From positions 1 through 43,641 of IMG/VR virus record IMGVR_UViG_3300037493_007247: a DNA stretch of 43,641 nucleotides. One strand, given 5' to 3'. A model generated the notes under the pieces. It saw nothing but the letters and a program-made list of their open reading frames with translations. It was not told the origin of the DNA and did no database searches. The position numbers were made by a program, and so were the translations under genes. Position 1 is the first letter of the stretch; every line of letters begins with the position of its first letter. Shown in pieces: positions 1,370-39,682 of this stretch. The stretch comes from a virus.

Positions 1370-2431
1370 TCAATTATTTTTTCTTGATTCGGCGATGAAT
1401 CTGTCAAAGCTCATAATGAATCTTTCACCTACAAGTTTTCCAGCCTCCTTTTCAATTGATTCAGGCTCGCCCATATCAACGATTTCTTTTTCAATTTCTT
1501 CAGAATCATCCCCAGAGATTGGCTTCATTTCTGCTTCACCGCCCTCTCCGGCCTTAGGAGCTTCTCCTTTAACATCTTTATCGATAGGTTGCTCATCGGT
1601 TACAAGCTCTTCGCCTTCACCTTTAACTGATTTAGGTTTGCCCATAGCCATGGTATCACCAGCAATTCCAGCTGCGGTTTCTGAACCATCTCCTCCGGTT
1701 TTGATTTCGGGGTCACCACCTTCTCCAGATTTTGAAGCAGCACCTTTAACCTCTGTATCGATTGGTTGCTCATCAGTTACAAGCTTTTCGCCATCTCCTT
1801 CTACGTCTGTTGGTTCACCCATTGTAACTATTTCATCTTCAATTTCAGAAGCAGTATCATTTGCTTCTTCAACTTCTTCATCTTCTTCGTCATCATCGTC
1901 ATCTTCAGTGTCTGCTTCGGAATCCTCGTCTTCATCATCTTCCTCTTCGTCATCTTCCTCTTCGTCATCTTCCTCTTCAGTTTCATCCTCTTCACTAACC
2001 TTAGATTCTCCTTGAATTTCTATTGCTGCAATCTCTTCGTCCTCTTCCTCTTCTGCGGGTGAAGGAACATCGTCAGATTCACCATCAGGAGCCGGATATC
2101 CTTCGGGATTAGGATTATTAAGATCATTAATTGATTCACCCAAAGATGATGTGAGTCTTCCTATAAGAGCACCATAGTCATCACCTTCTTTCTTATCAAG
2201 AAGACCATCAACTACTTTTTGTGCTTCAGCTTGGTCAAACTTATCACCAAATGATTTTTTCAACACAGCAAAGGCGTATTCTTTAAATTGATCATCGCTT
2301 TTGATTTCAGCCTCTTGAAGCTTTAGATAAGCCTCTTCTCCGAGTTTTTTAATCATCTCAACTTTTTCATTAGCGGCCTTTTCATCCGCTCTTTTTTGAA
2401 TAAACTGAGAAAACTTTTTTAATGTTTCCAT
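1370..2431 (-). CDS. Highly acidic repeat-containing putative head core/internal protein
   Basis: A 353-residue protein. Residues 1-110 are mostly helical and begin METLKKFSQFI, like the tags of the neighbouring cargo proteins. Two possible prohead-protease sites follow (L-G-E at 30-32, L-Q-E|A at 38-41). Residues about 127-190 are almost all Asp/Glu. Residues 200-335 hold two full copies and one partial copy of a 57-59-residue repeat (starts M204, M263, M320) with the shared core LVTDEQPID. The last residues, SFDRFIAES (341-349), again resemble a targeting tag with an I-A-E|S site. T4 head-core proteins such as gp67 are also acidic and cut by gp21, so a core, scaffold or packaged role is plausible but unproven. 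A late-promoter-like motif lies about 30 nt upstream. Confidence 0.5.
   Translation of the reverse strand: METLKKFSQFIQKRADEKAANEKVEMIKKLGEEAYLKLQEAEIKSDDQFKEYAFAVLKKSFGDKFDQAEAQKVVDGLLDKKEGDDYGALIGRLTSSLGESINDLNNPNPEGYPAPDGESDDVPSPAEEEEDEEIAAIEIQGESKVSEEDETEEEDDEEEDDEEEDDEDEDSEADTEDDDDDEEDEEVEEANDTASEIEDEIVTMGEPTDVEGDGEKLVTDEQPIDTEVKGAASKSGEGGDPEIKTGGDGSETAAGIAGDTMAMGKPKSVKGEGEELVTDEQPIDKDVKGEAPKAGEGGEAEMKPISGDDSEEIEKEIVDMGEPESIEKEAGKLVGERFIMSFDRFIAESRKNN
1420..1834 (-). repeat. Tandem 57-59-codon coding repeats inside the acidic head protein gene
   Basis: Two full units (starting near 1822 and 1645) and a shortened third (near 1474) share coding sequence, for example the stretch encoding LVTDEQPID at about 1755-1785 and again at about 1580-1610. 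The third unit leads into the C-terminal tag-like segment. Confidence 0.75.
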
Positions 2432-32856: not shown

Positions 32857-33116
32857 TAGTCGATCTCTTTGTAATTTTTAGGAACGGTGTAGTTAAAATA
32901 GATTCTCACGTACTTAACAAGTTCAATATGTTGAACCATGTAGTTGTTTAATTTTTCAAGGAATCCTGCTACTTTAGAATTTCTAAAAAGATAATTAGAA
33001 ACAGTCTTTTGCATAAGAGTCTGAGTATAGTCATAGCCCAGATGCTTCAAATCATTTTGAGTTGAATTTGAAACATCATAAAGACTTACCTGATTATTAT
33101 GTGGATCTATAGCCAT
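32856..33116 (-). CDS. Small conserved-looking protein of the baseplate operon
   Basis: An 86-residue, mostly helical protein with aromatic residues (YLFRNSKVAGFLEKLNNYM, about 43-61). It lies exactly between the gp6- and gp7-like genes, its ATG overlapping the gp6-like TAA. It is probably a small wedge component or assembly factor. No family recognised. Confidence 0.55.
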   Translation of the reverse strand: MAIDPHNNQVSLYDVSNSTQNDLKHLGYDYTQTLMQKTVSNYLFRNSKVAGFLEKLNNYMVQHIELVKYVRIYFNYTVPKNYKEID

Positions 33117-34945
33117 TATGAAACTGTACCAGAACTATTTTTAATTATTGGAGAATAGACTTTGTTTTGTTGTATTTTTTTCAAAGAATTGAACTTATTC
33201 TGTTCTAAATCGTTATATAGATTTTTATTTACAAAAGCTTTAAATATAATGTTTAACGAACTTACAGTGTTCTCAGATGGAATCTCTTCATAATAATTTT
33301 TGTTTCTATCATACCATCCTCCTCTTATCAACACTAGATCGTCTTGTTCAAGTTTAATATCCCCAAAGTCATCTAATCCAATCAGTGGATCTTGACCCGG
33401 TTCGATAGTTATCTGCTTTCTTTCAATAATTATTTCTTGATTTGTTATTGGATCCTTTTGTTTGACAGGGGCAAAGTAGTACCCATTTCTAATTGCCTCT
33501 TCATTTTCCTGAGAGACAAAGAATACATTCACAGAATCAATACCTTCGATATTTTCAATTATACTAATAAGATCAGAACGTGGAATTGAAGTTTTTCTTT
33601 TTACATTTAAGAAATATGAACTTAGTGCACTGCGAATCTCAGTGGACAAAACTCCTTTGTCAAATCCTTCAATATACTTAAGAACAATATTAATTGCATA
33701 TTTTTTGATGATTGGATTTACAATTTCTACTTCGGAAGTAACGAGTTGTTGACCGCTTTCGTTAAGAAGATTCAAAACTCTTTGTTTTTCTTCGTCAGTG
33801 AGTACAAACTCGTTTGCTGGAATATTGAAATAGTCAATATCAGTAGTGATTTTTCTATTTACATCTGGAAGAAGAAAAAGATAAACAACATTATCGTCAT
33901 CTATATTATTATCGTTCTTTGTGTTATATGCATCAATATGAGAAAAATACGCATATTTTTTTAAAAAGTAAATGTAATTGTTTGGGTTTGCCAAAACAAA
34001 TGATTTGCTAGCATAAGGTGCTATAAGTCTTGTAAACTCTGGATCCTCATTGTTTGCACCAAAAATAGGTTTGCTTACCAGTTTAATGCTTAACACTTCA
34101 TTTAAGTTAATCTCACTGCCTAATTGATCAACTCCTTCCGTTGTAAACGTGAATGTGATATTATTTGCAGTATCAAGATTACCAGAAAGACCTGCAGTTT
34201 GTACATATTGAATTGTAATCTTTGAGCCTGCAACTGGTATAGCTCCAAAATTCCCAGTTCCAAAATAAATGTCGAGTCCTCCGTTAATACCTGTCTTAAC
34301 CAAGCAGCCCGGTTCATTGTTTCCAAGATCATACAATGAGTTTTCTACTGGATAATCAACCCCATTTACAGTAACCTTAATTCTTTGATCATCCGTTGGA
34401 TCAAGAGTATTAATTGAAAAGCTTTGTAACGGAAATCCAGTTCCGGTAAAATCTTGAGTTTGAACGAGCCCTTGAACTAATGTAACCTGCTGTGGAGCAA
34501 GAGAAGTTTTGTCAATTGCTATAAATTCCTCACTTCCAAAATCTAAGAAATAGTTTAAACCGTTGGTCTCACAGTTTAGTGTACAAAAGTTAGGAATTCG
34601 TAAAGTATTACCCGAGATTTGAGAAGCAGCGCCGGGAGCAACATTTAATTGTAATGAACCAAAAGCAGAAACACCTCTCGATGGGTTGTGTCCTGTTAAT
34701 CTTGACAATCCAAAAACAGACTGAGCGTTTCTTGCTCTACTGATATTTAATTCAGTAATTGCGGCTTCAATATAATAGAAAATAAGCTCACTAATATTTG
34801 AAACAACAGACAAAATCTGTCCAAAGGGGGAAGCTGGAGTAAAAAGATCAGAAGATTGTTGATATTTCTCTGAGAGATATACAAAAGCGTCATTGTAAAG
34901 CTGTTGAGCTCTTACCCTGTTTTTAAATAAAAAAGAATCTGCCAT
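33116..34945 (-). CDS. 6: Baseplate wedge protein gp6-like (baseplate J family)
   Basis: A 609-residue protein with the gp6/J N-terminal pattern: PASPFGQILSVVSN, YYIEAAITELNISRARN, then GLSRLTGHNPSRGVSAFGSL. The middle is beta-rich, and the C-terminal third has an alpha/beta domain with YAINIVLKYIEGFDKG and SRSDLI-like spacing (RSDLISIIENIEGIDSV). gp6 forms the ring that closes the T4 baseplate (660 residues in T4). It follows the gp25-like gene with a 15-nt gap. Strong call by pattern and order. Confidence 0.75.
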   Translation of the reverse strand: MADSFLFKNRVRAQQLYNDAFVYLSEKYQQSSDLFTPASPFGQILSVVSNISELIFYYIEAAITELNISRARNAQSVFGLSRLTGHNPSRGVSAFGSLQLNVAPGAASQISGNTLRIPNFCTLNCETNGLNYFLDFGSEEFIAIDKTSLAPQQVTLVQGLVQTQDFTGTGFPLQSFSINTLDPTDDQRIKVTVNGVDYPVENSLYDLGNNEPGCLVKTGINGGLDIYFGTGNFGAIPVAGSKITIQYVQTAGLSGNLDTANNITFTFTTEGVDQLGSEINLNEVLSIKLVSKPIFGANNEDPEFTRLIAPYASKSFVLANPNNYIYFLKKYAYFSHIDAYNTKNDNNIDDDNVVYLFLLPDVNRKITTDIDYFNIPANEFVLTDEEKQRVLNLLNESGQQLVTSEVEIVNPIIKKYAINIVLKYIEGFDKGVLSTEIRSALSSYFLNVKRKTSIPRSDLISIIENIEGIDSVNVFFVSQENEEAIRNGYYFAPVKQKDPITNQEIIIERKQITIEPGQDPLIGLDDFGDIKLEQDDLVLIRGGWYDRNKNYYEEIPSENTVSSLNIIFKAFVNKNLYNDLEQNKFNSLKKIQQNKVYSPIIKNSSGTVS

Positions 34946-34960
34946 GTATATGAATAATTT

Positions 34961-35326
34961 TTAAAATAAGAACGAAATTATTTTTTTATCGTTTACTGTT
35001 ACGTCCATTAGAGCGCCATATGCTGATTCGTTATTAAGTTCATAAAACTGTACATTAACTCCTACATTAAATTTTGAAGCCAACGGACAATATGTTGCTA
35101 TCAAATTTGATATACGCGATTCTATTTGACCCGAACTAAATGATGTGCGTAAAATTTCACTTTCCAATGATGCACCAAAATCATTGCTTCCAAGAACTTC
35201 GTTTTTATTTGTAAAAAGAATATTTTCTATCTGAAGAATTAACAGAGAAATATCATCAGACACCTCTAACTGATTAGGATTATACTTGCTAACAAGATCA
35301 TCCCTGCTGTAAATGTCAAGACTCAT
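34961..35326 (-). CDS. 25: Baseplate wedge protein gp25-like (GPW/gp25 family)
   Basis: A 121-residue protein with the gp25/W hallmark: an N-terminal helix, then IENILFTNKNEVLGSNDFGASLE (about 33-55), then a helix and two closing strands. gp25 sits at the base of the sheath and triggers contraction with gp6 and gp53. A late-promoter-like motif lies just upstream, so the wedge genes can be read separately from those upstream. Confidence 0.8.
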   Translation of the reverse strand: MSLDIYSRDDLVSKYNPNQLEVSDDISLLILQIENILFTNKNEVLGSNDFGASLESEILRTSFSSGQIESRISNLIATYCPLASKFNVGVNVQFYELNNESAYGALMDVTVNDKKIISFLF

Positions 35327-35376: not shown

Positions 35377-36165
35377 TTAAGCTGTAAAGAAATAATCTGT
35401 CCCCTCGTCAGTTTTTATTTCTTCAGTGATTGCAGCAATCTCATCATCTCCTTCAGATTTATAGAGATCATAATTAATTGTAATACCTCCAGGAAGGTTA
35501 TAATTAAATGTACCCATAACTCTTGCTAGTTGCTGTTTACATCTTGCAACTACATATCTAAGGAAAATTTCATCTCCAAATAAACTACAATCATCAAGTT
35601 TAGTGTATACCTGAAATACAACCGTGTAATCAGGCTTTTCACCTAAAAATCTAAACTTATGATTCAAATAATTAAAAGTGTAGGACATTGCATTTTGTAA
35701 AACTTGACGTGCACTATCAATAAAATACTCATTAATTACAAAATACATTAAGTTCTCTGATGCAATACCTTCTCCACCTCCGTAATATGAATTATAAACC
35801 ATTTTATCAACCGCAAAATCAGTATCACTTGAGTTAAAGCTGTAGTTGCTGAATCCACCATCTTCACCACTAAACCTACTTAGCTGAAACACTGCGTTAA
35901 CTGCCCACACTGCATTTGGTAAGGTAATCTCCCCTGTTTTTCTAAAAGCTTCAGTGTTTTTGTTATACTCTTCAGGCGTTAATGCAAGGAATTTTTCCTC
36001 TACTGAGTACTCATAATGCTTATAAAACCATTGTTTGGCTCTTTCAATAATACGAGCAATCTCTTTTTTAGGAATGTTATAAGGTAATTGACAAGAAACT
36101 GTAAGTTCTTGAGTGACCTCGTTGATAAAATTATCAAGACATCTTATTTCAGCGGGTGTAGCCAT
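35377..36165 (-). CDS. Putative neck or tail-associated structural protein
   Basis: A 262-residue protein: helical N-terminus (EIARIIERAKQWFYKHYEYS, 50-69), a Gly/Tyr-rich middle (YNSYYGGGEG), and a C-terminal part with LRYVVARCKQQLARVMGTF and an acidic tail. Proteins of this size and make-up occur as neck or connector components in T4-like phages (gp14 has 256 residues), but the match is not good enough to name it. It is encoded between the amidoligase-like gene and gp25. Confidence 0.45.
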   Translation of the reverse strand: MATPAEIRCLDNFINEVTQELTVSCQLPYNIPKKEIARIIERAKQWFYKHYEYSVEEKFLALTPEEYNKNTEAFRKTGEITLPNAVWAVNAVFQLSRFSGEDGGFSNYSFNSSDTDFAVDKMVYNSYYGGGEGIASENLMYFVINEYFIDSARQVLQNAMSYTFNYLNHKFRFLGEKPDYTVVFQVYTKLDDCSLFGDEIFLRYVVARCKQQLARVMGTFNYNLPGGITINYDLYKSEGDDEIAAITEEIKTDEGTDYFFTA

Positions 36166-36166
36166 A

Positions 36167-37426
36167 TCATTTTATCTTTTCATACTCAAGAACTCTCGTA
36201 GTGTTCGAGATTCTTGATATATTATTTATTTTTCCGTTCTCAAAAAAGCCTCTTTCCATTTCACCTATCATGATTCCACTTCTTCCCGTGAAATGACAAT
36301 CAATTAACTTACTTGTTCCATTTACATAAGAATCTAAAAGATAAGAAGATGTTGCGGTTGTTTGAGAGAATAGATTTGATTTACTGATATAACAGTTATC
36401 TAGATTAGATTCAAAAACATCGCAATCAACAATCATTCCGCCAACCTCGCTCTCAAGAATATCAATACCTTGTAGAAAGAAAGAGTTTTTAAGATTTCCT
36501 TCTTTAATTTGAAATTTGCTTTGATCTGAATCATAGTTTATGTAACCTTCAGTCATACTTGAATCTCTAATTATCTCTAACAATCTGGTTCTGAGTGTAG
36601 CGAAAAAACTGTGAACACGGGAATCGTGAGTATTGAGATCGATAGTAAAATTGATTTTTGGAAAAGATTCTTTAAAGACTGCCAAGTTACGTAGAGATTG
36701 AACAAGATGACCACGTCTGTCCTGTATTTTTTTCAATCTCTCCTTCTCATCGATGCTTAAATTTGGATCTTGAATACTCGTAACCAGTGCATCAATGAAT
36801 TCATCTACACCTTCAAATATTTTTGACTTTTTGGTTTGATAATCTTTACCACCAAAATATTTAAGAACTAAATAGCTGGAGAAAGGACCTCCAAACTCCA
36901 CAGCAAAACTCTTTTTTATTGGAGAAACATTAACCAGGGGATCGAAATCCAAAGACAACAATTTTTTTATAGGTCTAGAAAAAACATGATTTTGACGAGG
37001 GAAATCCTTTAAAACTTTATCCTCGTTAAAAAGCATTATAAGCTTTAAAAAATTCATCTTTCGAAGATCTAAAAAGCTTCCCTTTTGGGCACCTATAATA
37101 CAGTATAAATCCGAATTTTGATTTGTTTCTCCATTCTCTGTAATCCAGCCTAAGATCTTATTTAAAAGAGATTTTGACCCAAGAAAAGGTAGCATCGGAG
37201 TTGACAGCCTATAAGAGTTACCTCCTCTTTCAAATTTCTTTTCAAGTTCAAATCTTCCAAATGGAGAAGTAGTGGTAATTGATGAAGTGTTTTGAAAAAC
37301 TTGATCCCCAAGAAAAGAGGACAAAAGAGATCTGGTTTTATCAAAACCCTCTTTTGTGTTAAAATCTATAATAAAAGCTAATCGTAAGTCAGAAAAAATC
37401 TGCGATCGATCCTGTAAGGATAACAT
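36167..37426 (-). CDS. Amidoligase-like domain fused to pentapeptide/beta-helix-like C-terminus
   Basis: A 419-residue protein. Residues about 10-160 resemble phage amidoligase-family proteins: STPMLPFLGSKSLLNKILGWI, then NGETNQ, then a line of hydrophobic helices with FPRQNHVFSRPI. However, the CGLH-type active-site motif expected after the TN pair is replaced by SDLYCIIG, so activity is doubtful. Residues about 320-400 have regularly spaced Asp/Asn/Cys/Ser turns (VDCDVFESNLDNCYISKSNL), like a right-handed beta-helix or pentapeptide repeat. A late-promoter motif lies 10 nt upstream. Its place among baseplate genes suggests a virion protein that has lost or reshaped an old enzyme fold. Confidence 0.35.
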   Translation of the reverse strand: MLSLQDRSQIFSDLRLAFIIDFNTKEGFDKTRSLLSSFLGDQVFQNTSSITTTSPFGRFELEKKFERGGNSYRLSTPMLPFLGSKSLLNKILGWITENGETNQNSDLYCIIGAQKGSFLDLRKMNFLKLIMLFNEDKVLKDFPRQNHVFSRPIKKLLSLDFDPLVNVSPIKKSFAVEFGGPFSSYLVLKYFGGKDYQTKKSKIFEGVDEFIDALVTSIQDPNLSIDEKERLKKIQDRRGHLVQSLRNLAVFKESFPKINFTIDLNTHDSRVHSFFATLRTRLLEIIRDSSMTEGYINYDSDQSKFQIKEGNLKNSFFLQGIDILESEVGGMIVDCDVFESNLDNCYISKSNLFSQTTATSSYLLDSYVNGTSKLIDCHFTGRSGIMIGEMERGFFENGKINNISRISNTTRVLEYEKIK

Positions 37427-37435
37427 TTACTTTTT

Positions 37436-37449
37436 CTTTTATATATCAA
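37436..37449 (-). promoter_or_regulatory. Late-promoter-like motif upstream of the amidoligase-like gene
   Basis: The minus strand reads TTGATATATAAAAG, ending 9 nt before the ATG at 37426 and overlapping the last codons of the S1-like gene. Confidence 0.6.
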
Positions 37450-38555
37450 GGTAAAGAATAAACTATCTTTCTGTTTACAGTATCAATTTTTAAAATCCTA
37501 ACCTTTACATCTTCTCCAACGTTTAATACTGTTCCCTTTAAATCATTTGTGTGTAAAAGACCAGCAAGACCTTTCTCCAATTCTACAAATGCTCCATACT
37601 TTACAATTTTTGTAACTGTACCATTTACAATAGAGCTAGGGGTATACTTTTCATCAGCGTTTTTCCATGGATCGTGTGATGGCCCTTTTTGACTAAGAAT
37701 TATTTTGTTTTCGTGAATAATCTGTTTCACAAAAAACTCAATCTTATCCCCAGGTCGAATTAGCTTGTTGTTAAAATGAGTTAAACTTTCATCAAGCTCA
37801 TCAGCTGGAATCATACCAGTCAAACACTCATTGAATTCGGCAAACACTCCAAATTGAGTAGTGCCAGTTACAAATCCTTCTATCTTTTTCTCAAGATTCT
37901 GTGACAAATCCTCAATTGTTTGAGGGATTTGTGTTTTAAGATATTCTCTGTGAGAAACTACGACGGTTCCTTTTTCTTTGGAGTAATTAATTGGAACAAC
38001 AACTATCTCTTTTCCTAACATCGATTCAAAATTCCAAAGCTTATTCACTCCGGCTAAAGATCCTGGCATAAATGTTTCAACCTCATCGACACTTACCATA
38101 TAACCACCTTGAATGAGCTCTTTTACAACCCCATAAAATCCAAGAGATTTCCCAATAGAATCCATAAGCTCATTTTTCTTTTCTCGTTGAAGAACGTCTC
38201 CAAAACTTGCTTGAATATGATCTGCTTTCCTAAGCAGTTCAACCTTAACTATTTGACCAGCTCTTAGATAATCTCTGTATTTTTCTTTTTCTTTGTGAAG
38301 CGGAATAAATGCAGTTTCAGCACCTAGATCAATAACAGCTTCATTACTATTATTTATATACTGAACTTTTGCTTCTACAATATCACCCGAGTTGTAATTT
38401 GGTGATATGGGTTGACCTTCATAAAGTGATAGAAGATCTGCAACATATGATTCTTTACTTAATATCTTTGTTCTCTTTGGAATTTCTAACTCTAAAACCT
38501 TTGATTCAAATGGATCTTCTTGGTTAGGATAGAGTGTTATTTTTTGATTAGGCAT
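37446..38555 (-). CDS. Four-domain S1 RNA-binding protein (ribosomal protein S1-like)
   Basis: A 369-residue protein made of four S1 OB-fold repeats: about 56-118 (GDIVEAKVQYIN), 138-203 (YGVVKELIQGGYMVSV, with the VVSHREYL end typical of S1), 223-290 (EGFVTGTTQFGVFAEF, IILSQKG), and 307-369 (NGTVTKIVKYGAFVEL, GLAGLLHTNDL). No nuclease or PNPase domain accompanies them. Ribosomal protein S1 recruits mRNA to the 30S subunit; a phage copy could bring phage mRNAs with A/U-rich leaders to ribosomes. It is encoded inside the tail operon and has its own promoter-like motif upstream. Domain assignment is strong, the role is inferred. Confidence 0.85.
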   Translation of the reverse strand: MPNQKITLYPNQEDPFESKVLELEIPKRTKILSKESYVADLLSLYEGQPISPNYNSGDIVEAKVQYINNSNEAVIDLGAETAFIPLHKEKEKYRDYLRAGQIVKVELLRKADHIQASFGDVLQREKKNELMDSIGKSLGFYGVVKELIQGGYMVSVDEVETFMPGSLAGVNKLWNFESMLGKEIVVVPINYSKEKGTVVVSHREYLKTQIPQTIEDLSQNLEKKIEGFVTGTTQFGVFAEFNECLTGMIPADELDESLTHFNNKLIRPGDKIEFFVKQIIHENKIILSQKGPSHDPWKNADEKYTPSSIVNGTVTKIVKYGAFVELEKGLAGLLHTNDLKGTVLNVGEDVKVRILKIDTVNRKIVYSLP

Positions 38556-38582: not shown

Positions 38583-38598
38583 CTTTATATATACTCAA
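38583..38598 (-). promoter_or_regulatory. Late-promoter-like motif upstream of the S1-like gene
   Basis: The minus strand reads TTGAGTATATATAAAG, overlapping the stop codon of the 96-residue gene and lying about 28 nt before the S1-like ATG. Three extra bases separate TTGA from TATATAAA compared with the commonest form. Confidence 0.5.
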
Positions 38599-38885
38599 AT
38601 TATAAGTGCAGGTAAAGAAGGTGTAGTAGTTGATCCAGGAAGCGGGGTAGGGGTAAAAGCAGTAAGAACAGCTTGTCCAGGAGGAATTGTGATAGTAGCA
38701 GATCTAATATACAAGTCAATAGCGGGAGTTGCCAAACCTGCAAATGTTTTTGCAGCAGCCTTTCTTGCTATATCTGCAACATTAGTTCCTTGTGGATTAT
38801 TTGCGATAGTTTCCGCAAAAACGAACATTGCTTTATCAAATGCTTCTTCTAAAGCAACGTTTAATAGAATAGGTACTAGAGCCAT
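38595..38885 (-). CDS. Small structural protein next to the spike gene
   Basis: A 96-residue protein: helical N-terminal two-thirds and a C-terminal strand/Pro/Thr-rich end (ITIPPGQAVLTAF, then GSTTTPSLPALII). It follows the spike protein by 2 nt. In T4 the small spike-tip PAAR protein (gp5.4) is encoded near gene 5, but the PAAR Cys/His zinc pattern is absent here, so it is left unnamed. It is probably a hub or tube component. Confidence 0.45.
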   Translation of the reverse strand: MALVPILLNVALEEAFDKAMFVFAETIANNPQGTNVADIARKAAAKTFAGLATPAIDLYIRSATITIPPGQAVLTAFTPTPLPGSTTTPSLPALII

Positions 38886-38887
38886 AT

Positions 38888-39682
38888 TTATTTTGTTTTA
38901 ACTTGTTTTTTACTTAAGTGTTGAAGCGGTGTCATTGGAACTATAGGGGGAGATGTAGGTGCACCTAGATTGGCGATATGAGTGTGTTGATTAAAAAATT
39001 GTAAAAAAGAATCCCCTAATACTAGTTTTTCTGAAGCTCCACTTCCCAGCTCAATTGATGTTGAGTGATCAATAATTACGTTTTCACATTTAATTATAGC
39101 ATCTTTACAGGTAATCTGTGTATTGTTAACACTAATTATTTCAATACTATTGTCTGGCTTAATGTTAATTATTGACGATCCTTGTGTAGTTGCATAATCA
39201 ATAACGAGACCCTTTTCCTCAGTGAAAAACAGCTTAATAGATTCTCCACTTCTACCATTGTTTCCGTCTTTATCCAGGCCAAATGCTGTATCATATATAA
39301 GAACGTGTGAGTTTTGATATGAATTGCCTATTTCAGTTTTAACCTCATCACTTGGATGAACTGAGCCCAGATAAATCGGTGTATAGATGTTTCCATTGTC
39401 AAAATAGAGAGACACGACACTTCCTAATTTTGGAACTGAAAATTGACCACTTCCACTTAAACTGCCAGATGCTGATGAGAAATTTGGATAAGCCCATGGT
39501 AGATGCTCATCCGGAATGAGGTAATCACTGTTTGGATCATCGGGATTTACTCGAGCGTCCAGTTTTCCAAAGATCCTAATTCTACATCTTCCCTCTTGGT
39601 TTGGATCTTCAACATCAACTATTTTACCCAACCAAAACGTACCTACTAAATTATCATCAGTTATGTTTCCAAGTTGTGGCAT
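38888..39682 (-). CDS. 5: Baseplate central spike protein, gp5-like without lysozyme domain
   Basis: A 264-residue protein. Residues about 10-110 form an OB-fold typical of gp5/VgrG/gpV spikes (VGTFWLGKIVDVEDPNQEGR, PKLGSVVSLYFDNGN, YLGSVHP). Residues about 150-230 are repetitive beta-strands (INIKPDNSIEIISVNN, CKDAIIKCENVIID), forming the trimeric beta-helix needle, followed by NQHTHIANLGAP with the HxH seen at the iron-bound tip of gpV-type spikes. T4 gp5 carries a lysozyme domain between OB-fold and needle; here it is missing. The ATG overlaps the previous stop by 1 nt. Confidence 0.75.
   Translation of the reverse strand: MPQLGNITDDNLVGTFWLGKIVDVEDPNQEGRCRIRIFGKLDARVNPDDPNSDYLIPDEHLPWAYPNFSSASGSLSGSGQFSVPKLGSVVSLYFDNGNIYTPIYLGSVHPSDEVKTEIGNSYQNSHVLIYDTAFGLDKDGNNGRSGESIKLFFTEEKGLVIDYATTQGSSIINIKPDNSIEIISVNNTQITCKDAIIKCENVIIDHSTSIELGSGASEKLVLGDSFLQFFNQHTHIANLGAPTSPPIVPMTPLQHLSKKQVKTK

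What the first reader, a model, noticed from the sequence alone, without database searches (positions are those of the whole stretch)
37446..38555. Phage-encoded four-domain S1 protein inside the baseplate operon
Four S1 domains with no extra catalytic domain look like a ribosomal protein S1 derivative. Nearly all gene starts here lack Shine-Dalgarno sequences and have A/U-rich leaders, the class of mRNA that depends most on S1-type recruitment. A late-expressed phage S1 could favour phage mRNA on ribosomes or take the place of host S1.
Basis: partly seen in the sequence, partly recalled or inferred. Interest (0 to 1): 0.7.

Follow-up and report, generated by a model that had tools for sequence, protein, structure and literature searches.

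The report
Phage ribosomal-protein-S1 copy in baseplate operon
A large uncultured virus of bacteria, probably one infecting Bacteroidota, carries its own shortened copy of ribosomal protein S1 (the protein that feeds mRNA to the ribosome) in a fixed place among its tail genes, which fits the published idea that huge phages put their own ribosomal proteins on host ribosomes late in infection.

Summary
The gene at 37446-38555 (-) encodes 369 aa with four S1/OB domains and no other domain. It lies between a gp5-like baseplate hub gene and head-tail adaptor/baseplate-wedge genes. It is a true bS1 relative: an AlphaFold model aligns residues 39-369 to residues 1-347 of ribosome-bound E. coli bS1. 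Domain 2 is specifically bS1 D2. The uS2-anchoring positions are conserved in the family, and the RNA-contact residues of D4 in 30 of 31 sequences. The window copy deviates at one anchor residue (Glu80 for Lys). All 80 IMG/VR relatives fetched, and a 462-kb huge phage, keep the gene at the same place in the tail cluster. The 634-735-kb and Lak megaphages carry the same monophyletic family elsewhere, in Lak beside tRNA/replication genes, so a virion-only role is unlikely. Gene starts show no Shine-Dalgarno excess, but neither does a Cellulophaga phage without S1, so this is not independent evidence for S1 function. Phage rpS1 in huge phages, its link with missing Shine-Dalgarno sequences and the hijack hypothesis were published in 2020 (Al-Shayeb). 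New here: true bS1 identity, a Bacteroidota-like anchor, single origin and fixed late-operon position. Ribosome binding remains untested.

The parts
37446..38555 (-). gene for the four-domain phage bS1-like protein (369 aa)
   Evidence: ORF; Pfam/NCBIfam; AF2 model; purifying selection in relatives
38418..38447 (-). N-terminal helix (aa 37-46), counterpart of the bS1 helix that docks on uS2; Leu41/Tyr45 occupy the Phe5/Phe9 positions
   Evidence: helix in model; structural alignment starts at model residue 39 = bS1 residue 1; Tyr45 in 30/31 relatives and in the Bacteroidota bS1s of the panel
38202..38399 (-). OB domain 1 (about aa 53-118), bS1 D1-like ribosome-anchoring domain
   Evidence: best-scoring bS1 domain model is D1 in the window and most relatives, scores weak; D1-D2 rmsd 3.1 A over 163 residues to bS1 on the 30S
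37941..38141 (-). OB domain 2 (about aa 139-205), bS1 D2 type with GGY...FMPGSLAG signature
   Evidence: 44.6 bits to bS1 D2 against at most 8 to other domains; Tyr152 and Phe162 invariant in A2
37686..37892 (-). OB domain 3 (about aa 222-290), RNA-binding class
   Evidence: scores best to the bS1 D4-D6 class; Phe235/Phe238 conserved, His replaced by Pro250
37449..37643 (-). OB domain 4 (about aa 305-369), RNA-binding class with Tyr320/Phe323/His335
   Evidence: 30/31 relatives keep each residue; absent in Lak phages
38584..38591 (-). TATATAAA, candidate late-promoter element 36 bases upstream of the S1 start
   Evidence: ATATATAA within 90 bases upstream of S1 in 73 of 80 relatives, 0.02 expected each; window copy
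37438..37445 (-). TATATAAA between S1 and the next gene
   Evidence: in relatives it lies in the loop of a covarying hairpin
36167..37426 (-). conserved unknown protein g30 (419 aa) that follows S1
   Evidence: no PHROG or Pfam match; follows S1 in the relatives
35377..36165 (-). head-tail adaptor-like protein
   Evidence: phrog_211, E 8.6e-12
34961..35326 (-). small conserved protein, gp25-like by position only
   Evidence: conserved in the syntenic block; no family match
33116..34945 (-). baseplate wedge subunit (gp6/J-like)
   Evidence: phrog_219, E 5.6e-26
38595..38885 (-). small protein upstream of S1, conserved in part of the relatives
38888..39682 (-). baseplate hub gp5-like protein
   Evidence: phrog_430, E 4.7e-18; Pfam Phage_base_V

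Best explanation
The gene encodes a viral version of ribosomal protein bS1 cut down to four OB domains. The N-terminal helix and domains 1-2 most likely dock on uS2 on the platform of the host (probably Bacteroidota) 30S subunit. Domains 3-4 most likely bind the A/U-rich single-stranded leaders of phage mRNAs. Expressed with the tail genes, it would occupy or compete for the bS1 site late in infection and help load phage late mRNAs. Shown: fold (predicted), domain identity, conserved contact residues, single phage family, fixed place in the late gene cluster, leaders without SD. Inferred: expression time, ribosome binding, mRNA preference, displacement of host S1, and host phylum.
For: Best sequence matches in the PDB are bS1 proteins. 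The structural alignment covers model 39-369 against bS1 1-347 on a 30S mRNA-delivery complex (Z 14.4; rmsd 15 A because the domains are flexibly linked), and D1-D2 alone at 3.1 A over 163 residues. D2 is specifically bS1 D2, and D3/D4 belong to the RNA-binding class. Positions reported to contact uS2 in E. coli (Phe9, Lys43) are held by Tyr45 (30/31) and Lys80 (30/31); the mRNA-facing OB2 aromatics (Phe120, Phe130) are Tyr152 and Phe162 in 31/31 (residues from PMC10123108). Tyr at the Phe9 position is shared only with the Bacteroidota bS1s of the panel, and Lak S1 shares the Bacteroidota N-terminal motif FNWxxYENG. One phage clade, support 100/100. Same place in 80/80 IMG/VR loci with a TATATAA element upstream. 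Parallel: phage bS21 genes in Bacteroidetes phages are expressed with late structural genes (PMC9723584).
Against: No binding, expression or proteome data exist. The window copy has Glu80 where 30 of 31 sequences have Lys (the uS2 zinc-pocket lysine), so its anchoring could be weaker. Lys117 of OB2 is not conserved. D3 has lost the canonical His (Pro250). No resolved sister group among bacterial bS1s, so descent from the host's S1 is not shown by the tree. Absence of SD is also seen in a Bacteroidota phage without S1.
Confidence: 0.6

Rival explanations
1. Off-ribosome RNA-binding protein: a bS1 derivative that coats, unfolds or protects phage late mRNAs, or acts as decoy or repressor (as bS1 does on its own mRNA), without stable ribosome binding.
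For: Two RNA-binding OB domains are retained with conserved aromatics. Window Glu80 replaces the uS2-pocket lysine. A covarying hairpin sits directly between S1 and the next gene in relatives, a possible target.
Against: Conservation of the N-helix and of domains 1-2, which in bS1 serve ribosome binding (PMC10123108), is hard to explain if they are not used; D2 is among the best conserved parts.
Confidence: 0.22
2. Virion component: an OB-fold protein recruited as part of the baseplate or neck, or carried in the particle and ejected.
For: Always inside the baseplate cluster in the 80 close relatives; in two Mahaphages it is close to a tail-tube-like gene.
Against: In Lak-A2 the same family lies near tRNA-His guanylyltransferase and DnaB helicase genes, not tail genes. 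RNA-contact residues are kept. Position relative to tail genes differs between phage groups.
Confidence: 0.08
3. Cofactor of a phage nucleic-acid machine (transcription, RNA processing or recombination), as host S1 serves Q-beta replicase, T4 RegB and lambda beta (functions reviewed in PMC13157829).
For: bS1 is known to be borrowed by phage enzymes; Lak S1 lies near replication genes.
Against: No partner gene is constantly beside it across phage groups; the ribosome-anchor positions are kept in the family.
Confidence: 0.07

Closest known systems
Huge-phage rpS1 (Al-Shayeb et al. 2020, PMC7162821), including Mahaphage/Lak genomes
   Same: Homologous proteins: 46% identity over 98% to one encoded by the 462-kb LR756500 record, 28-38% identity over parts to Mahaphage/Lak copies; one clade; leaders without SD.
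   Different: That paper could not confirm 'true' rpS1 proteins and its main text (as searched) does not describe the fixed baseplate-operon position; here domain identity and synteny are tested. The window phage is a lineage separate from Mahaphages. That LR756500 is one of the genomes of that paper is inferred from record type and size.
Bacterial ribosomal protein bS1 (rpsA)
   Same: Colinear with domains 1-4, N-terminal uS2-docking helix, OB2 aromatics, RNA-binding class domains 3-4.
   Different: Four domains, not the six of Bacteroidota and E. coli bS1; scores far below the full-length rpsA cut-off (146 against 577 bits); phage-specific FMPGSLAGxNKL motif.
Phage bS21 of Bacteroidetes phages (Chen et al. 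2022, PMC9723584)
   Same: Ribosomal protein gene inside a conserved late structural gene region; proposed to bias translation late in infection.
   Different: Different ribosomal protein; no bS21 was found in the window fragment, in LR756500 or in Lak-A2, though four Mahaphages have both.
PhiMa05 jumbo cyanophage bS1 (PMC13157829)
   Same: Phage-encoded bS1 of similar length (359 aa).
   Different: Falls outside the huge-phage S1 clade, so a separate acquisition (its own branch is long); sits with other ribosomal protein genes, not tail genes.

Membership tests
Ribosomal protein bS1 | Tandem S1/OB domains without other catalytic domain | tested here: met
   four OB folds in the model, only S1-type families matched
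Ribosomal protein bS1 | N-terminal helix plus OB1 that dock on uS2 (Phe5, Phe9, Lys43 in E. coli) | tested here: inconclusive
   helix and fold present; Tyr45 present, Lys80 in 30/31 sequences, but the window has Glu80
Ribosomal protein bS1 | bS1-type OB2 (KGGF...FLPGS signature) | tested here: met
   44.6 bits to D2, at most 8 to other domains; GGY...FMPGS invariant, Lys117 position not kept
Ribosomal protein bS1 | RNA-binding OB domains with aromatic/His contact residues | tested here: met
   D4 Tyr320/Phe323/His335 each 30/31; D3 Phe235/Phe238 kept, His lost
Ribosomal protein bS1 | Passes the curated rpsA equivalog cut-off | tested here: not met
   TIGR00717 145.9 bits, cut-off 577; so it is filed as a phage bS1 relative, not as an rpsA ortholog (control: only 2 of 14 known genomes pass this cut-off)
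Ribosomal protein bS1 | Physical presence on the ribosome | not testable with these tools
   needs biochemistry
Huge-phage rpS1 of Al-Shayeb 2020 | Encoded by a phage with rarely identifiable Shine-Dalgarno sequences | tested here: met
   phage structural genes around it; SD 2/34 vs 2.1 expected
Huge-phage rpS1 of Al-Shayeb 2020 | Homology and common ancestry with those proteins | tested here: met
   tree: one clade with LR756500, Mahaphages, Lak, support 100/100
Huge-phage rpS1 of Al-Shayeb 2020 | Genome over 200 kb | not testable with these tools
   the record is a 43.6-kb fragment
Virion structural protein | Constant association with tail genes across the family | tested here: not met
   Lak-A2 copy lies near Thg1 and DnaB genes

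The most novel reading that the evidence does not exclude
A widespread group of large Bacteroidota phages reprogrammes host ribosomes late in infection by swapping host bS1 for a shorter phage bS1 whose gene is hard-wired into the baseplate operon, so that initiation on A-rich, SD-less late mRNAs no longer depends on host S1.
Probability: 0.3. Interest if true: 0.75.

Novelty: new member of a known kind. Interest (0 to 1): 0.42.

Why it matters
It turns an uncertain annotation (S1 domains in huge phages) into a well-defined, monophyletic viral bS1 family found on several hundred contigs, with specific residues to test. If it binds ribosomes, it offers a natural way to ask how SD-independent initiation in Bacteroidota is steered and how phages take over translation.

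Tried and rejected
Derivation from non-ribosomal S1 proteins (PNPase, RNase R, NusA, Tex): these match single domains only and rank below bS1. Structural role: not supported by the Lak context. A true Shine-Dalgarno upstream of the next gene g30 (AGGA in 54/80): explained as the 3' arm of a covarying hairpin, absent where the arms differ. Descent from Bacteroidota bS1 by tree: sister group unresolved; CPR bS1 shares a VTGTTxFG motif, but those genomes were picked by that motif, so this was not used. Bacterial-genome hits: the 'Erysipelotrichaceae' and 'Clostridium' contigs carry phage-type S1s nested in the phage clade and look mis-binned. Control caveat: crAss001 showed some SD (10/39 vs 4.1 expected), so Bacteroidota phages are not uniformly SD-free. 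Queries with Lak and Mahaphage S1 alone found only one IMG/VR locus each. A one-to-one match of phage domains 3 and 4 with bS1 D3 and D4 was expected but not found: they score best to the D4-D6 class.

Full report
What is there. The window is a 43.6-kb viral record. The gene at 37446-38555 on the minus strand encodes 369 aa. Pfam S1 matches at E 1.5e-25, and 30S ribosomal protein S1 models align over almost the whole protein, though below their full-length cut-offs. Flanking genes are a gp5-like hub, a head-tail adaptor and a baseplate wedge protein.

Is it really a ribosomal S1? PDB sequence matches are led by bS1 chains. AlphaFold2 on the window protein with 30 relatives gave four OB folds and an N-terminal helix at 37-46 (pLDDT 86.5). 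Foldseek's best hits are bS1 on the 30S subunit. VIA-align matches model residues 39-369 to bS1 residues 1-347 (Z 14.4; large overall rmsd because the domains are flexibly linked), and domains 1-2 alone at 3.1 A over 163 residues. Domain profiles made from six-domain bacterial bS1s assign phage domain 2 clearly to bS1 D2, domain 1 weakly to D1, and domains 3 and 4 to the RNA-binding D4-D6 class without a clear one-to-one identity. Residues that E. coli bS1 uses to hold uS2 and mRNA (Phe9, Lys43, Phe120, Phe130; PMC10123108) correspond to Tyr45 (30/31), Lys80 (30/31), Tyr152 (31/31) and Phe162 (31/31). The window copy itself has Glu80. In the panel of bacterial bS1s, Tyr at the Phe9 position occurs only in Bacteroidota. 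The Lak phage copy also shares the motif FNWxxYENG with Bacteroidota bS1 and with no other bacterium in the panel. Together these suggest an origin from, or adaptation to, a Bacteroidota-type ribosome. The tree itself does not resolve the bacterial sister group.

How widespread? tblastn in phage records found a 46% identical full-length relative in the 462-kb LR756500 and more distant relatives in the 634-735-kb and Lak genomes. In all 80 the S1 gene keeps its order among the neighbours present on the contig: g33(/g32)-S1-g30-g29-g28-g27. All phage copies tested except that of PhiMa05 form one clade with full support. In the largest phages the gene sits near other tail genes, and in Lak-A2 near tRNA-His guanylyltransferase and DnaB. 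The gene therefore follows the phage lineage, not the baseplate as a structure.

Gene starts and promoters. SD-like motifs are at chance level in the window (2/35 vs 2.0; 2/34 vs 2.1) and close to chance in relatives (90/1247 vs 68.5, much of the excess being the hairpin arm before g30), while T4 shows 25/45 vs 3.5 by the same method. Leaders in relatives are A-rich, with G nearly absent at -12 to -16. A Cellulophaga phage without S1 shows the same lack of SD (3/47 vs 2.5), and Bacteroidia ribosomes fail to recognise SD (PMC9976891), so this trait does not by itself point to S1; crAss001 shows a moderate SD excess, so the control is not uniform. A TATATAA element lies upstream of S1 in 73/80 relatives (0.02 expected each) and at 38591-38584 in the window. 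It resembles a T4-type late promoter (resemblance from memory, not tested).

What it most likely does. A late-expressed phage bS1 that docks on uS2 and helps load SD-less A/U-rich phage mRNA. The predicted fold and residue conservation are shown; expression time, binding and selectivity are inferred. The strongest rival is an off-ribosome RNA-binding role, which the Glu80 change in this copy keeps open.

Known or new. Al-Shayeb et al. 2020 (PMC7162821) reported S1 in huge phages, its association with missing SD and the hijack hypothesis, while noting that true rpS1 was hard to confirm. Mizuno et al. 2019 (PMC6375957) left S1 domains out because of functional ambiguity. Chen et al. 2022 (PMC9723584) made the parallel case for bS21 in Bacteroidetes phages. 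PhiMa05 (PMC13157829) is an independent acquisition. The window gene is a new member of that known kind; the additions here are the tests of bS1 identity, the single phage clade, the near-universal anchor residues and the fixed late-operon position.

Noticed in passing
window 37427-37445 and the S1-g30 gap in L022-L100 (e.g. L067:10860-10904): In relatives a hairpin (stem TCCTGGTTTG/CAAATCAGGA, with compensatory changes at 4 of 7 consensus pairs) with TATATAAA in its loop lies between the S1 stop and the next start; it explains an SD-like AGGA there. It is weak or absent in the window, where the gap is 19 bases.
   Followed up: partly
window minus strand near 38591, 37445, 35348, 11108, 6689, 2471: TATATAA(A), often as TTGATATATAAAA, upstream of several genes: a likely phage promoter element; 14 copies on the minus strand and 4 on the plus strand of the window.
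   Followed up: partly
L017 (ONCO01000010.1) and L018 (CAMYZH010000086.1): Contigs filed as Erysipelotrichaceae and Clostridium genomes carry phage-type S1 genes (L018 is Lak-like) and look like phage contigs mis-binned into bacterial MAGs.
   Followed up: partly
L010:14436-14846, L012:14181-14570, L013:14016-14477: A small protein (129-153 aa) with a shared sequence pattern directly precedes S1 in three of the largest phages (634-642 kb), which otherwise differ in gene context.
   Followed up: no
window 36167-37426: Protein g30 follows S1 in the relatives but matches no PHROG or Pfam family; a possible partner or neck/baseplate protein.
   Followed up: partly
window 1370-2431: Gene product with a long run of Glu/Asp (EEDEEEDDEEEDDEDEDSEADTEDDDDDEEDEE), a highly acidic phage protein.
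   Followed up: no
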